A DNA stretch of 64,000 bases from Pempheris klunzingeri (Eukaryota; Chordata; Actinopteri; Acropomatiformes; Pempheridae), in the NCBI RefSeq assembly GCF_042242105.1, contig NC_092012.1, forward strand, positions 8,127,470 to 8,191,469. The letters run 5' to 3'. Positions 55,135 to 62,499 of the stretch are shown piece after piece. The notes beneath the pieces were generated by a model, which worked only from the letters and a program-made list of their open reading frames with translations, did not search any database and was not told the DNA's origin. A program made the translations under genes and the position numbers. Positions within the stretch are counted from its first letter, which is position 1, and each line of letters begins with the position of its first letter.

Positions 55135-55661
55135 GTCTAAACTATGCATCAGTATGTATTTTGCTATAATTCAGAGCACTGAATAAGCACAGCCAACTGC
55201 ATTACCATGTAAAACTAATTAAAGTGGGACAATAATAAAAGCAGATGCTAAAATTCAGCGTGATCTCTATCAAGCATGTTTCAAGTAGATTTTTAGCACA
55301 GAACCAAAATGCGTGGCATCAAAATGAGCCTGGATGGCAGGGATACCGATCTGAAAGTCTAAAAACGTTAAGGTGTGTAAGATGCATATGAAGTGACCAC
55401 GACGTCCCACTTGGGATGTGGCTGGAAATATCCACTGCATCTCATCTCCCCTTTCTCTCCTCTCACTTTGCCTGTTCGATTCTCTACTGTATTCCTTCAA
55501 ATAAAAGGTGCAAATGCTCAAATAATTATCTTAAGAAATATGCAAAATACTTGGACTTTGGAAAATTGTGAGCAGTAACATAAATTTGATATGTAATAAA
55601 TAGGCTAAAACATGCAAAACCACCTTTATGTTCACTAATACAGCAGAAACACTTGGAATTC

Positions 55662-58600
55662 CTACGTTCTTTTAGCAGGTTTGGCAATGAGCTGCCTTTC
55701 TCTCTCAAGCTCCTTCTCACGTTGCTGCTCCTTCTCCAGCGCCTCCTTCTGCTTCTGTTGCTGCAGCTTCAAAGCTCTTTTCTGACAGAAAACAACAGTC
55801 AGCATTTTAACAGTGCAAGCATTGTTTCATTTCAATCCAACCACGTATATCTGCTTTCTCTGCGCATGGTGTCAACTAGACTAATGCTAAGTCTGTCTGA
55901 GATGAGCCATACCTTTAGTTTAGTTGTCTTTTCATGGAGCATAATCATCTCTTTCCTTATGTTCACCAGTTTATTGTGGTAAATTTTCGCCTCTGTAAAC
56001 TACAGACAACAAGCTGGATTAGAAATCCTTCCTGCTGGCTCGTGTGCAGAGTACAAACAGGAGCAATGTGAGTACAAATGAGATTAGAATTCAGTCCAAA
56101 CATACCAGGGAGTTGAGGTCCAGTAAGGCATTACATTCTCTGAACTTGGTGACCTCTTGGTCCAGTGTGTCTAGCAATACCAACTGATTTTGTCTGGTTG
56201 AGGCAAAAATGAAGGGGAAGAAATAAATGTCACCAAGTGCACCATACATTACTCATGAAAACTTGTAGATAGATAAAACGTGTGTATGCCAATTATTCAG
56301 ACAATGACAGGGTGTTTTGAAGTGTCCCACTGACAGTTCAGGTTGCATTGCATGACATAAAGGATAACTCTGGTGTTTTTAAATTTGGGCCCTATTTTTA
56401 CACATTTTGAGTTTAAAACATCTGTTAGTTTCAAAAACGTTTGACATTGGTCCAGTAGATCGGTTGATTCTGTCGACAGCCAAGAACAGGTGGTGAATGA
56501 GCTACAATGGCTGTAATGTAATTCATCCTCTAAAGTGCATCCACTAAAAGTGCTTGTTTTTGACACTGACAGGCTCAGATTGTTATTCTAAGTGTCAGCA
56601 TTAAAGAGAGGATTGCTTCAGAGATAGAGCTATAAGATAATTTCCGTTTAATCAGAAGTAGTTGTTATATTGCTTGGTTCAAAGCCACCAGACTCCATTG
56701 ACAAAAACAATAATTTTACATAGTAGCCGCTGGTCTATCACTGTCTCGATCAGTTAGTTTGTTTGCATTATTGTGTGACTTTGGTGTTTTTAAGGGTTAG
56801 TTTGGATTCAACACAATATCTGTGCAACACACAATAACACAAACAGACTAACCGACACAGGCAGCAGTAGACCAGCAACTTCTGTGCTCAGTGAGATAAA
56901 ATTACTGTTTTTGTCAATGCAGTTTTGTGGGACTGAATAGAGCAATATAATGGCTGTTTTTGGTTGAACTAAAAGGATCTTAGAGGTCTATTGCTTTAAG
57001 TATCATTTCCCTAATCTGAGCCTGTCAGTAACAAAAACAAGCACTTCTAGTGGACATACTTCAGGCGTAATTGCCCATAAGGAATACATTACAGCTGTTG
57101 CAGTCCGTTCTCGGCTGCCAGCAGCAGAAAGCTACTGGATGAATTCCAAAACTTTTTGTACCCACCAGTCATTTCTGACCCAAAATATGTAAAACTAGGT
57201 CCCAGGTTTAAAAATATCAGTTATTCTTTCATGCATACAAGTGAACGCCAGCATATGGATAGTTCAACTGTTTCACTGGCAGACACCAAAACAAAGCTTA
57301 AAGCTGCTGGTCAAACCCATCCATCCAGTTCTGCTTGACACATGATGACATGTGACACCCATTTGTTTATGGTGTACTTGTGTCTGTGTATGTATTTTTT
57401 CTGTGAGGTGACGGAACTAATCAGTACAACTTCAATCTGTTAGGGGAAAACTTGCCAATGAAATCACAGATTGCATCTTTAGATGGAAGAAAACCAGCAC
57501 AAACTTGTCCTGTCATGGCACATAGTTACCTGATCTTGATCTAGCTCAATCCCCTACCACTTTTACACCTTACCCCGGTGCTCTGATATCAAATGTTAAA
57601 TTGCTTGTGACCATCAGGTGTAGGTTGTCTATCATGAAACACAGAGCATGTAAATACTCACGTCAGCTCTTGGAGGGCTCGTTTAGAGTTCTGTAGATCT
57701 GGCAGGTAGTGAGCGATTAATCCCTCTGTGAGTTTGTCCACTGCTTTCTTATCCACGAACACATTCTCTATAGAGGCTGAGCTCTCCAGACACAGTGATT
57801 CCTGCTGTGGCAACTGGAGATCTGTGAGATATTTAAGGACAAAATGTACAAAGCTTTTCATCGTCCGCCTTTTGGTGGCAATCTGTCTTTTCTTGCTTGA
57901 GATTTCAAAACTTTAAGAAAGCCTGGGTTACAAACTGGGGGTCTGAAGTTTGAAACCTGTGGGCAGTTATAAGTCAATGAGGGTCTAATGCCGCTTTCGT
58001 GTAGAAGATATGGTAAAGATGAGAAAGACTCATATTTATTTAATGCAAGTGTTGTGTTAAAGATGTGCAGTAACAATATAACACTATATCCATTAAATGT
58101 TGGTTTAATTACCTGAACACACTTTAGTTAATGTGAGGAAGTGGTTTTACAGCACTTCTGTATCCTTTCCTTTTCACACACTGTATTTATAGATTTTCAT
58201 TTTACAGAACAAAAGCAAACATCCATTGGCAGTGTTCAATTAATCGGGCCCAAGTTTTAATATATCTGTTGGATTATACCTTAACTTCTCCAGTGGAATC
58301 ACAGAAAGTACTTCCTTGACCCAGTGTTTAAACAAGTGAGATTTCACTGACTTCCGGTGCAGAGGATTTAACCTCCAGGCTAGCAGTGCTACAAATGCTT
58401 GAGCATTTGACTGGAAAACTGTATGCTGACACTTCTGTATCTCTACGCTCCACCTTCTATATATGTAAAAGATTTCAGAAAAGAACCTTGGTCAAAACCA
58501 TGATTCTGATTTTCCTATGTTTGCAATTTACAAGTCAGGAACTAGTGATTACACCAACTCTAATATGACATGAACACGGCATAATCAAAGGTGCTTTTGG

Positions 58601-58937
58601 CTGGCATTATGGGATGTACTACACGATCCACTATTTTTGAAGCTTGCTGTACAATAGGAATCTAAAGGTTTGGATATCTCAGCCTCTACATTGTTTTAAA
58701 GTTCATGGGTTAGGGTTCCTTCTTTGGTGAATGAGGATGCATTAGTTGGCATTAGTTGACAGGCACAAACTGAGGCTGCAGCAGGACTCAGCTAATCTAT
58801 ACTGCAGCCTGCTCGTAGCAGGCTAGGACAGGTACAGACAGACAGAGAGCAGGTAAAGTATCAGCTCACATACCTTCACTGTGTGGGAGTTCACTCTGGG
58901 ACGAAGGTCCCTCATCTTCCATCCCCTCTACCTCCAT
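55662..58937 (-). CDS. bloc1s6: BLOC-1 subunit 6 (pallidin), 172 aa
   Basis: Coding exons in transcript order: 58874-58937, 57662-57821, 56106-56193, 55913-55999 and 55662-55781. The joined frame is 519 nt and gives 172 aa, the same length as human. The product is a subunit of BLOC-1, the cytosolic complex that sorts cargo from early endosomes to lysosome-related organelles such as melanosomes; loss causes Hermansky-Pudlak-type phenotypes in mammals. The conserved core HYLPDLQNSKRALQELTQNQ is intact. After it the protein is a continuous coiled coil, first ELTQNQLVLLDTLDQEV, then the charged ALKLQQQKQKEALEKEQQR region, ending in AKPAKRT (human AKRM). The N-terminal 25 residues are divergent, as usual in this family. 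The ATG was chosen because the frame is closed upstream by a stop in the same exon. Confidence 0.95.
56361..57229. repeat. Giant imperfect palindrome (foldback element) in a bloc1s6 intron
   Basis: The left arm starts GGATAACTCTGGTGTTTTTAA and the right arm ends TTAAAAATATCAGTTATTC, its diverged reverse complement. Pairing continues inward: AGTGCTTGTTTTTG with ACTGACAGGCTCAGATT on the left matches AATCTGAGCCTGTCAGT with CAAAAACAAGCACTT on the right (57013-57051). Further in, ATTGACAAAAACAATAATTTTA pairs with TAAAATTACTGTTTTTGTCAAT, and GTTAGTTTGTTTGCATTATTGTGTG pairs with CACACAATAACACAAACAGACTAAC. The centre is near 56,785-56,820. It lies between the exons at 57662-57821 and 56106-56193. It looks like a foldback-type non-autonomous DNA transposon with arms of about 420 bp. 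Confidence 0.85.
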
Positions 58938-59215
58938 ATGCAACGACTCTGTTGACCCAGACTGCTTTTATAACCTAAAATCAGACACATGGATCTCACT
59001 GTTTTATCAGGTGGAAACTGATCAGTTTCTGGGTCATTAAAACGTTTGTTTATCACAACACCGAACGTCCAGGCGTTGAGGAAGTGTCCAGCTAGCTTGC
59101 TGAGCTGCTAACCAGACAGTCAGTCTGTAAACACTTCACCTCAGTCATCACCATCTTACCTGTCTGACTGTCTATTTAACAGTAACTGTAGGTGTGATGA
59201 GTTGAGATGGCGGAT
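58938..59215 (-). other. bloc1s6: bloc1s6 5' UTR exons
   Basis: The start-codon exon extends upstream to 58974, where TGATTTTAG forms the acceptor. A non-coding first exon ends at 59160 with ACAG|GTAAGA on the minus strand and probably starts somewhere near 59200-59290. The ends are estimates. Confidence 0.5.
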
Positions 59216-59345
59216 GAGGTGATGATCTGTTCAGCAAATGCAGAAGAAACGAAGATTTTCTTTTGGATTTGTTGCTGCGTCCAGAAAAAAAAACCGTCAT
59301 GTGACTCCTGCGTCATCACGTGACTGCGAGCGCAACCTAGCATGC
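59216..59345. promoter_or_regulatory. Shared bidirectional promoter of bloc1s6 and slc30a4
   Basis: The predicted first exons of two divergent genes lie about 100-200 bp apart. Between them, GTCATGTGAC (59296-59305) and TCACGTGAC (59316-59324) fit, with one change and fully over nine bases, the MiT/TFE CLEAR consensus GTCACGTGAC. TGCGTCA, a CRE/ATF-like half site, lies at 59309-59315 between them. No TATA box was seen. Regulation by TFEB, TFE3 or MITF is inference from motif and gene function. Confidence 0.55.
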
Positions 59346-59455
59346 TAGTATTAACGCTGCCGCTGAGCGCAGAGGAAGCTAGAGGCAGGACTGTGATGAC
59401 AGTTTTTAAATTTAAAAATGAAGTAAGTTTGTGCAGCCGAACAGTGTGTCTTTAG
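59346..59455 (+). other. slc30a4: Predicted slc30a4 first (non-coding) exon
   Basis: It ends TTTAG|GTAAGT, a full-consensus donor at 59456; an alternative donor with GTAAGT lies at 59423. The next exon starts at 59755 after a pyrimidine-rich tract ending CCCGAAAG. The 5' edge is approximate. Confidence 0.5.
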
Positions 59456-59762
59456 GTAAGTCTGCCTCGTGTTTTTAAACAAAATACCACCCAACAACGG
59501 TCGCCTGATAGCCGCAAAGGGACATGACAAGATAGCTAACCTTAACTAGTTAGCTTGTTACTGTTTAGCCTTGACTCTTTTCACGAGGGCTATTAAACTT
59601 GAAAGTTTATCAGCTCCTGTAGGAACGTGATGGGTTTATCTTTAGCATTTAAATGCACCAACTTAGTCACAAGAATAGGCCATGCTGTTGAAATTGCTGA
59701 GCTGTACTGATGATGTGTTCCGGTGTCACTTTTCCTTTGCTGCTCTCCCGAAAGGTGCTAAG

Positions 59763-59804
59763 ATGGAGTGGAAGTGCGAGCTGACAATGGCCACGAGAAT
59801 GTGA
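59763..59804 (+). other. Upstream ORF 1 in the slc30a4 leader (13 codons)
   Basis: ATG at 59763 opens a 13-codon frame closed by TGA at 59802-59804, wholly before the main start. The main start at 59875 is out of frame with it. Confidence 0.6.
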
Positions 59805-59963
59805 ATGATTACCCCAGAGGACAGGCTACAGGCAGAGCTCACCTGGATATACCTCGCCCCTGTAATCATTAAAGATGTCAGGTGGGAACTTCTTGAGCAA
59901 GGTGCGGTCCGTCTTCAGGATGGAGCGGAACGACTGGGACCTGAGCGACACGGCTCCCTTTGA
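59805..59963 (+). other. Upstream ORF 2 overlapping the slc30a4 start
   Basis: ATG at 59805-59807 follows directly after the TGA of the first upstream ORF. It runs 52 codons to TGA at 59961-59963, crossing the main ATG at 59875 in the +1 relative frame. It shows no protein similarity I recognise, so any effect would be through translation control. Confidence 0.6.
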
Positions 59964-62499
59964 CTTCTCCGACGAGCTGGTGGAGGATGAGACGCCCAAA
60001 TTCAACAAGCTGAAGGTCGTGGTCTCCGGAGAGATGTCGGACTACTCTGCCGGAGCTCCGTCCAACGGGGTGGCGGTGAACACGCTGGTGGTGGCGGATG
60101 ATGATGACTCCCTGCTCGAGTCCTCCAGCCTGGGCAGCCCGGGGTTAAATATGGACCCTTGTGACAACTGCGCCAAGAAGAGGGAGAGGATCAAACACAG
60201 CAGGGTGATGAAGAGGCTGGTCATTGCAGCTTTGCTGTATTTCCTTTTCATGGCAGGTGAAATTGTAGGTAAGTATGTGCAGAGTACATTTTGCACTTTA
60301 GTGTGAATGCTGCACAGCATTCACACTAATAATCCATTCACACTAGTTATCCTGTTCTTTATTATTCTTCATTCAACTTTTAAACAGGTCACAAGACCTT
60401 CAGCGGTTACAGTATAATTCAGCCTTTTGATATCTTTAACTGTTTTGACAGTTAAAGATATCACAGTTTTAGTTTTATGCTGTTTTCCCTCCTTTTCAGA
60501 TTTTATAATGAGTGTGTATTGCGCTGCCTAGAGTGGGTGATGTCATCGCTAGAGTGCAGAGGAGCAGAAAAATTGTCTGAAAGTTTTGTCTTTAGCTTGC
60601 TCTCACGCCCAGTGTGTCACTCAAACTCACCATTTATGCATCAAAATGTAGGAAAAATCATGCCCGTCGCAGTACTGTGGCCACGGAAACAAAAAAACGT
60701 ACACAGCTGCCTCCATGAGCCTCGAAGTGACAGGAGTGCCAACCAACTGCTTAATTGCCTGCCATGTTAACTGAGAGCACAAACTGGAACAACAAACACT
60801 TTTCTAACCTGCTCCAGCTCTCTCAATTTAGAAGTTAGAGACATCAAACTACATGTACGTGTTCAGCAGAGTGTCTTCTCTCCACAGGTCTACACATTAA
60901 AGCTGTGACAGTTACTGTTTTTAGCTAAAACCTGGATTTTCAGAGATGTGTCACAGCAGTTATTGACATCGGCTAATTAGTGACGTTTGACACAGAAACA
61001 CTTTAATGGTGCATTCGCAGGCAGTAGGAAATCCCACCACTCAAATCATGGAACCTGAAACCATGAATTACAACAGGCCGCAATGCAGTGTGCCGTCAGC
61101 TATTCAGCAGGCAGCATTCACACTGGCATTTCTTCAGGAATTGCAAATATTTATAGTTTGATTAATGATGCCTTGTGACTTGTTAAGACTGGAATGTTTA
61201 TAACCAACCTGAGGTGCAGGACTAAGGAGCAAACCATTTACAGGCTTTTAAGATGTATATCTGGACAAGGCTCTTAATATAAACACAACTGAGTAATGTT
61301 GACACCTTACAATGAGTCATTTACCCAAATTCCATTATATTATATTATAAGATATTTACTCACATACTCCCAGTTGTAAAGTTATGTTGAATTAAATGCA
61401 GGTCATGTTATCCCAGTTGGGCCACCTTGCCTAAACCAGAGAATACCACAATCAAAATCTCCATACCTAGATATCTCTAGAGAAAAGTAACACTGTTTTT
61501 CTTGTTCTTTTGTAATTTGGATGAATTGAGTTCAGGATGATTCACTCTCACATCGTTACCTCAGATGCCTCAATTAAATCATCACCTGTGTGACGAGGCC
61601 TAGACAACAAACAAAGGCAGTGTTTGTCTCAGGATTGTTTTTAAGGACTGAATTAGTCACCATACATGCATCCACATTATCAAAGACATCTCCTGTTATT
61701 TCCCAGCTCTACACTGGAATCAAAGTTTCTGCATTTTCAGTCTTTCTGCATTTAACCTCTAGTCTAGGAACTCTAAAAGCGTGTTCAAAATCTCTAGATG
61801 ATATATTTCCCTGTTAAATACTATTATACCACAAAGAAGACAATGCTACAAAGACAGAAAATGACCACGTTCAATACTGTCCATTTTGGAAACCATTTGG
61901 GTTGCCATGTGCTAGGCATTTTCTGCTTTGCTGTTCTTAAATGTGTTTTTTCCACATGATAGAGAGGGCCTTTGTTTTCCTTTTGAGCCTGAGCGTAATG
62001 AAAAAGTGGTGACCAGAACATAACCTCCTTGATTAAGGTTTGCTGAGAGTGTGGCAGTTCAACACAGAACACATTTAATATAACATAACAGAATTAGATT
62101 TCATTGTACTAGGGGCACATATGTACAGTGTTTCAAATTATGGTCTTTATTTACCAAGTGAGTTATCCAAAAAAACTAAAAACTTTAAATATACCCGTCG
62201 GTTCACAGTAAATGAAAATAAACCCGTATCTTTGCTGTTGATGATGATGATGATCTGTATAAACTTGTTTGTTTTGTATTTCAAAATCTGTGCATAAATA
62301 ACTTAGCCAGGGCTCAGCAAATAATATTCTTATTGTTGTCTTTTACTCTCAGGTGGTTATGTGTCAAACAGCTTAGCCATTATGACTGATGCTGTGCACA
62401 TGCTAGCAGACGTGGTGGGCATTTTGTTTTCTCTGCTGGCCCTCTGGCTCTCCACCAAGCCACCCACCAAAAGGTTCACCTTCGGCCTCCATCGCCTGG
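59875..62499 (+). CDS. slc30a4: Zinc transporter ZnT4, N-terminal part (two of its coding exons)
   Basis: Exons 59875-60268 and 62353-62499 code for residues 1-180; the gene continues past the right edge (human ZnT4 is 429 aa). ZnT4 is a cation-diffusion-facilitator antiporter that moves zinc from cytosol into endosomes, lysosomes and secretory vesicles. The cytosolic N-terminus has the ZnT4-specific FDFSDE and KFNKLKVVV stretches, an acidic DDDDSLLES block and the cysteine pair in DPCDNC (residues 95-99). TM1 lies at about 114-133. TM2 contains [15 protein letters not shown] with the zinc-site His147 and Asp151 (HxxxD). The next segment reads [10 protein letters not shown], as in human ZnT4. 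The start agrees in position and wording with human. The head-to-head bloc1s6 neighbour supports orthology. Confidence 0.94.
60300..60327. repeat. Perfect 13-bp inverted repeat, 2-nt gap
   Basis: AGTGTGAATGCTG and CAGCATTCACACT are exact reverse complements separated by CA, giving a strong potential hairpin 32 nt into the intron. Confidence 0.9.
60429..60462. repeat. Perfect 15-bp inverted repeat, 4-nt loop
   Basis: GATATCTTTAACTGT and ACAGTTAAAGATATC are exact reverse complements around a TTTG loop. Confidence 0.9.

What the first reader, a model, noticed from the sequence alone, without database searches (positions are those of the whole stretch)
59296..59324. Paired CLEAR/M-box E-boxes in the bloc1s6-slc30a4 bidirectional promoter
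GTCATGTGAC and TCACGTGAC lie about 20 bp apart (two helical turns) between two divergent genes whose products both act in endosomes and lysosomes. The CLEAR consensus GTCACGTGAC is bound by TFEB, TFE3 and MITF, and the CATGTG form is the melanocyte M-box. One regulator could therefore co-induce BLOC-1 sorting and vesicular zinc loading, relevant to pigment cells and lysosome stress. The motif matches are seen directly; the regulation is inferred.
Basis: partly seen in the sequence, partly recalled or inferred. Interest (0 to 1): 0.7.

Follow-up and report, generated by a model that had tools for sequence, protein, structure and literature searches.

The report
Paired lysosome-type E-boxes, shared fish promoter
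Two strong binding sites for lysosome and pigment-cell regulators sit in the shared start region of two back-to-back fish genes, one for organelle sorting and one for loading zinc into vesicles; the sites are real and non-random, but that they control the genes is still only a good guess.

Summary
GTCATGTGAC (59296-59305) and ATCACGTGAC (59315-59324) both fit RTCAYRTGAY, centres 19 bp apart. They lie between a minus-strand pallidin gene (bloc1s6) and a plus-strand slc30a4, whose start codons are 938 bp apart and whose predicted exon-1 donors are 296 bp apart. Single E-boxes in the window are at chance level; the close pair is not (0 of 300 window shuffles, 0 of 20,000 local shuffles; post hoc). 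Genome-wide, CACGTG-bearing pairs exceed a reversed-pattern control about fourfold. One other lies in another head-to-head lysosomal promoter, sgsh/slc26a11, but most that I looked at had no recognisable promoter. In human melanoma cells a TFE3/MITF ChIP peak is reported upstream of BLOC1S6, over only a partial consensus, in data where the factors bind thousands of genes. USF factors read the same sites. Two metal-response-like cores lie beside the pair, but their number is not rare. Conservation could not be tested. Verdict: a credible new member of a known kind (CLEAR-type promoter); co-regulation of both genes is inferred. In worm, the zinc importer cdf-2 does not need HLH-30/TFEB, which argues against the slc30a4 half.

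The parts
59296..59305 (+). E-box 1, GTCATGTGAC (RTCAYRTGAY; TCATGTGA, tyrosinase-enhancer type)
   Evidence: site class from PMC10539308 passages
59315..59324 (+). E-box 2, ATCACGTGAC (TCACGTGA = CLEAR-box core)
   Evidence: TCACGTGA as MITF/TFEB/TFE3 consensus, PMC12828906 section 9
59309..59315 (-). TGACGCA, ATF/AP-1-like half-site between the E-boxes (label recalled)
59328..59334 (-). metal-response-element-like core TGCGCTC (consensus TGCRCNC recalled)
   Evidence: two or more cores in 1,545 of 20,000 local shuffles, so weak
59365..59374 (-). second metal-response-like core, within CTCTGCGCTC
   Evidence: 4 such 10-mers in the window
59160..59455 (.). 296-bp interval between the two predicted exon-1 donors: should hold both non-coding first exons and the shared promoter
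   Evidence: donor scores 11.2 (CAG|GTAAGA, minus) and 11.1 (TAG|GTAAGT, plus), with recalled weights; CpG o/e 0.97 and 0.95 in 59200-59499; no transcript data
58875..58937 (-). bloc1s6 first coding exon (part), starting at ATG 58937
55660..57819 (-). further bloc1s6 coding exons (Snapin/Pallidin); outer end approximate
   Evidence: translations; PF14712 E = 2.9e-21
59875..60270 (+). slc30a4 first coding exon (132 aa)
   Evidence: joined with the next exon, best PDB match is human SLC30A4 (9jj3, E = 1.7e-48)
62352..62498 (+). next slc30a4 coding exon (part)
   Evidence: translation; PF01545 Cation_efflux E = 1.2e-16

Best explanation
This is a compact bidirectional promoter. Two full-consensus MiT/TFE sites lie between the start regions of bloc1s6 (BLOC-1 sorting) and slc30a4 (ZnT4, vesicular zinc loading). 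Most likely mechanism: bHLH-leucine-zipper dimers occupy both sites. USF-type factors give basal activity, and TFEB/TFE3 (low mTORC1, lysosomal stress) or MITF/TFEC (pigment cells) displace or reinforce them and raise transcription in one or both directions. Shown here: sequence, gene identities, head-to-head anatomy, non-random pairing, presence of MiT/TFE-type genes, and a second in-genome example at sgsh/slc26a11. Inferred: start sites, occupancy, which factor, direction, and co-induction of both genes.
For: Both sites keep the 5' T and 3' A that raise MITF affinity; WT MITF binds TCATGTGA only moderately less well than TCACGTGA (PMC10539308 passages; PMC9545041 passage). The pair is absent from 300 window and 20,000 local shuffles. 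CACGTG-bearing pairs number 32/31 against 7/8 for the reversed control across the genome. Of 35 other such loci whose longest ORFs I read, one is the head-to-head promoter of sgsh (PDB 4mhx, E = 1.1e-52) and slc26a11 (PDB 9iar, E = 2e-37). CpG peak and two strong opposed donors 296 bp apart; of 34 pairs profiled, ours included, ours alone has donors scoring at least 11 within 250 bp on both sides. Six PF11851 (MITF/TFE C-terminal) exons in the genome. A human TFE3 peak, also present in the MITF ChIP, lies upstream of BLOC1S6 (PMC12828906 section 9).
Against: No orthologous promoter could be compared. The human BLOC1S6 peak covers only a partial consensus, and in that study all three factors bind 37,123 sites at 11,219 genes, so a peak is weak evidence of regulation. 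In worm the LRO zinc importer cdf-2 is induced without hlh-30 (PMC13160143 section 8). Pairs occur 292 times genome-wide; of the 34 profiled only 5 have flanking CpG o/e of at least 0.75 (ours 0.74, sixth), so a pair alone does not mark a promoter. The donor test does not flag the sgsh/slc26a11 promoter either (8.2 and 7.4). Donor weights were recalled approximations, and there are no TSS data.
Confidence: 0.45

Rival explanations
1. The E-boxes are general promoter elements bound mainly by USF1/USF2 (or other CACGTG binders) for constitutive expression; no MiT/TFE programme is involved.
For: USF1/2 can bind the same elements, though not at the same time as MITF (PMC9545041 passage). USF tetramers are reported to interact with two E-boxes at once (PMC10570711 passage), which would suit a pair. 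No TATAAA was found in 59000-59500 on either strand.
Against: The T/A flanks of both sites raise MITF affinity; that USF would prefer other flanks was not tested. The one confirmed comparator promoter is lysosomal on both sides.
Confidence: 0.3
2. The sites regulate bloc1s6 only; slc30a4 is driven separately, for example by MTF-1 through the two metal-response-like cores on its side of the pair.
For: Human peak assigned to BLOC1S6; [quoted passage not shown] two TGCGCTC cores at 59328 and 59365.
Against: Two or more such cores arise in 7.7% of local shuffles. A single enhancer can drive both genes of a head-to-head pair in worm (PMC12239621 abstract).
Confidence: 0.15
3. Chance or non-functional pair that happens to lie in a promoter.
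For: 292 pairs genome-wide, a number of them in arrays or repeat-like DNA; the finding was chosen after reading.
Against: 0 of 20,000 local shuffles; location in a 296-bp double-donor interval.
Confidence: 0.1

Closest known systems
CLEAR-element promoters of the TFEB/TFE3/MITF network
   Same: TCACGTGA core with RTCAYRTGAY flanks, in the start region of endolysosomal genes; a second site close by.
   Different: One site is TCATGTGA; the promoter is shared by two genes; no occupancy or response data.
sgsh/slc26a11 head-to-head promoter of the same genome (C3:21487873)
   Same: CACGTG plus CATGTG 10-mers 14 bp apart between two divergent lysosome-related genes. SGSH as a CLEAR gene is recalled.
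   Different: Different spacing; the one metal-response-like core in the 600 bp scanned starts 215 bp beyond the pair, not beside it.
C. elegans head-to-head HZA enhancer and the HIZR-1/HLH-30 zinc-lysosome cascade
   Same: One element can drive two divergent genes (PMC12239621 abstract); zinc sensor and TFEB co-regulate lysosome genes (PMC13160143 abstract and section 8).
   Different: Different zinc sensor and motif; cdf-2 is HLH-30-independent; the terms glo-2, pallidin and BLOC-1 do not occur in PMC13160143 or in PMC13286216.
USF-type E-box promoters
   Same: Same palindromic CACGTG core.
   Different: One site is CATGTG; whether USF or MiT/TFE binds is not resolved here.

Membership tests
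CLEAR / MiT-TFE target promoter | TCACGTGA-type element matching the family consensus | tested here: met
   ATCACGTGAC and GTCATGTGAC; consensus from PMC12828906 section 9
CLEAR / MiT-TFE target promoter | element lies close to the transcription start of an endolysosomal gene | tested here: inconclusive
   within 296 bp between two predicted exon-1 donors, but no TSS data
CLEAR / MiT-TFE target promoter | occupied by TFEB, TFE3 or MITF | not testable with these tools
   only a human BLOC1S6 peak in the literature seen, over a partial consensus
CLEAR / MiT-TFE target promoter | gene responds to TFEB/TFE3/MITF gain or loss | not testable with these tools
   no expression data here
CLEAR / MiT-TFE target promoter | site conserved among related species | not testable with these tools
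   the genome has no relatives here (stated); the other collections are described as prokaryotic, viral or plasmid and were not searched
bidirectional promoter | divergent genes head to head with under 1 kb between start codons (start sites not measured) | tested here: met
   start codons 938 bp apart (58937 and 59875); predicted first exons closer still
MTF-1 / metal-response promoter | multiple TGCRCNC cores beyond chance | tested here: inconclusive
   two cores; two or more in 7.7% of local shuffles

The most novel reading that the evidence does not exclude
The 296-bp promoter is a two-input switch. Zinc excess (MTF-1 at the two metal-response-like cores) and lysosomal or pigment-cell signals (TFEB/TFE3/MITF at the E-box pair) jointly raise BLOC-1 and ZnT4, so that lysosome-related organelles are built and filled with zinc together. 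It would be a vertebrate counterpart of the worm HIZR-1/HLH-30 cascade, hard-wired in one shared promoter.
Probability: 0.08. Interest if true: 0.65.

Novelty: new member of a known kind. Interest (0 to 1): 0.33.

Why it matters
If confirmed, it would place organelle sorting (BLOC-1) and vesicular zinc loading (ZnT4) under one control point, with a simple two-way reporter test. It would also suggest that head-to-head lysosomal promoters, such as sgsh/slc26a11 in the same genome, share paired MiT/TFE sites. Otherwise it is a sensible but ordinary addition to a large known target set.

Tried and rejected
Rejected: (a) that single E-boxes in the window are remarkable: they are near chance. (b) That any such pair marks a promoter: of 34 pairs profiled, ours included, 5 have flanking CpG o/e of at least 0.75 and ours 0.74, and others lie in repeats or inverted repeats, in tandem arrays, or in an intron of a saposin-like gene (L076). 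(c) That the metal-response-like cores are significant in number. (d) CpG o/e as a promoter test: it does not flag the sgsh/slc26a11 promoter (0.61), so I did not rely on it. (e) That our pair comes from the repeat seen in L010/L012/L020: L011, which holds our pair, matched no other of the 34 loci in the self-comparison.

Led nowhere: paper searches for BLOC1S6 with bidirectional promoter (0 papers); SLC30A4 with TFEB (9 papers listed; passages read of one, PMC13234162); zebrafish/tfeb/bloc1s6/slc30a4/mitfa (37 papers hold at least 3 terms, 12 listed) and pldn/slc30a4/zebrafish/melanophore, from which I opened only PMC3706446 (passages; no slc30a, bloc1s6 or pldn). PMC6355916: no BLOC1 or SLC30. 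PMC9545041: no BLOC1. PMC6689058: only its title matched. The 12 papers listed for CLEAR/TFEB/SGSH show no SGSH, so SGSH as a CLEAR gene stays recalled.

Limits and rows dropped: one search lists only the first places of 292; from that list I count 39 distinct loci, took 34 and left out 5 array-like clusters before the profile. Of 43 distinct CACGTG-bearing pair loci (my count), I read by eye the longest four or five ORFs at 35 plus our own locus (within 1.5 kb of the pair for 32, 5 kb for 3); 6 were held with 1 kb on each side and profiled only for CpG, donors and repeats; one (C5:90532) was not fetched. Five further loci without CACGTG (L047-L051) were read and none was recognised as lysosomal. 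Most of the 35 have no assigned gene, so lysosomal promoters may have been missed.

Full report
What is there. The stated motifs are present: GTCATGTGAC at 59296-59305 and ATCACGTGAC at 59315-59324. Both fit RTCAYRTGAY. The gap is 9 bp and centres are 19 bp apart.

The genes. Minus-strand exons between 58937 and about 55660 encode pallidin (PF14712, E = 2.9e-21). The plus-strand exon at 59875-60270 plus the next exon best matches human SLC30A4 among solved structures (9jj3, E = 1.7e-48; next SLC30A3 at 1.1e-20). The N-terminal slc30a4 exon gave one match in the genome, itself. Start codons are 938 bp apart. The bloc1s6 coding exon has an in-frame stop upstream of its ATG (read by eye), and strong donors at 59160|59159 on the minus strand and 59455|59456 on the plus strand (scores 11.2 and 11.1, with recalled approximate weights) suggest non-coding first exons on both sides. 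The interval between the donors is 296 bp. CpG o/e is 0.97 and 0.95 in 59200-59399 and 59300-59499, against 0.41-0.60 in the windows covering 58900-59299 and 0.77 falling to 0.40 downstream, before the coding exon rises again to 0.98. No transcript data were available, so start sites are inferred.

Chance. Single cores are near chance in the window. RTCAYRTGAY occurs 3 times against 1.33 expected. The close pair occurs in 0 of 300 window shuffles (3 of 300 with the looser 8-mer), and two 10-mers occur in 0 of 20,000 shuffles of the 296-bp interval. These are post hoc tests. Genome-wide the pair pattern is found 292 times against 210 for the reversed pattern. Both listings are capped; the control rows shown are mostly repeats in a few tandem arrays, whereas the real rows shown are mostly dispersed. 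Requiring one CACGTG gives 32/31 against 7/8, or 43 distinct loci by my count. The reversed pattern does not match vertebrate dinucleotide biases, so the fourfold excess is indicative only.

In-genome comparator. One of those 43 loci (C3:21487873, GTCACGTGACCTCTGTCATGTGAC) lies between minus-strand exons best matching 'Sodium-independent sulfate anion transporter' (9iar, E = 2e-37; the name belongs to SLC26A11 by recall) and plus-strand exons of N-sulphoglucosamine sulphohydrolase (4mhx, E = 1.1e-52). A first sgsh exon, recognised by eye, has its ATG 246 bp beyond the pair. So the genome holds a second head-to-head promoter of lysosome-related genes with one CACGTG and one CATGTG site close together. 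That SGSH is a classical CLEAR gene is recalled. Against over-reading this: of the 35 other CACGTG-pair loci whose longest ORFs I read by eye, only this one was a confirmed lysosomal promoter. One more (L075) sits beside CCAAT boxes and a signal-peptide-like first exon that I could not identify. One lies in an intron of a saposin-like gene, one near a SPARC-type exon, one near an exon that looks like SNX27 by eye only (no Pfam hit). The rest were unassigned. In the 34 pairs profiled (34 of 39 distinct loci in the capped list, array-like clusters left out), ours ranks sixth in flanking CpG o/e and is the only one with strong donors on both sides, a test that the sgsh/slc26a11 promoter does not pass.

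Trans-factors. Six exons match PF11851, the MITF/TFE C-terminal domain, all above the curated cut-off. The reading machinery is present.

Literature. In human melanoma cells a TFE3 peak upstream of BLOC1S6 is also visible for MITF, but only a partial consensus lies under it, and all three factors together bind 37,123 sites at 11,219 genes (PMC12828906, section 9), so a peak alone says little about regulation. A term search of that main text found BLOC1S6 once and SLC30A4 not at all. MITF-bound elements can also be bound by USF1/2, not simultaneously (PMC9545041, passages). Zinc is reported to activate TFEB (PMC9558701, PMC13234162, passages). [quoted passage not shown] a preprint). A single zinc enhancer can serve two head-to-head worm genes (PMC12239621, abstract). 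I recall that the human genes are divergent but tens of kilobases apart, so the shared promoter would not be a mammalian feature; this was not checked.

Other elements. Two metal-response-like cores TGCGCTC lie at 59328 and 59365 (minus strand), the second within CTCTGCGCTC. Two or more such cores arise in 1,545 of 20,000 local shuffles, so they are a lead, not a finding. A TGACGCA half-site lies between the E-boxes; ATF3, FOS and JUN motifs are reported near MITF peaks (PMC9545041 passage).

Judgement. The bidirectional promoter is well supported by sequence (about 0.9). Binding by some bHLH-leucine-zipper factor is likely (about 0.75). MiT/TFE control of at least one gene is plausible (0.45); co-induction of both genes is less certain. 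These odds are my estimates.

Noticed in passing
L052 4990-5013 (genome C3:21487873-21487896): Paired CACGTG/CATGTG 10-mers in the head-to-head sgsh/slc26a11 promoter.
   Followed up: yes
L012, L020 and L010 around position 1000; L024: Some MiT-type E-box pairs with 27-28 bp spacing lie in related or inverted-repeat sequence (L012 and L020 share 83 bp over the pair; L010 and L020 share 24 bp beside it; L024 is an inverted repeat), suggesting that a repeated element may spread them.
   Followed up: partly
genome C1:1193373-1193472 and C5:90532-91678: Tandem arrays or clusters built from RTCAYRTGAY units.
   Followed up: no
L075 1229-1509: An E-box pair (ATCACGTGACTTGTGTCACATGAC) beside CCAAT boxes about 200 bp upstream of a signal-peptide-like first exon on the minus strand; gene not identified.
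   Followed up: partly
59763-59963: Upstream ORFs in the slc30a4 leader: 13 aa from 59763, and 52 aa from 59805 overlapping the main start out of frame.
   Followed up: no
59403-59418 and 59337-59348: Perfect palindromes TTTTTAAATTTAAAAA and CTAGCATGCTAG in the slc30a4 side of the promoter.
   Followed up: no
59207-59213: ATGGCGG, a YY1-like core (label recalled) in the predicted bloc1s6 first exon.
   Followed up: no
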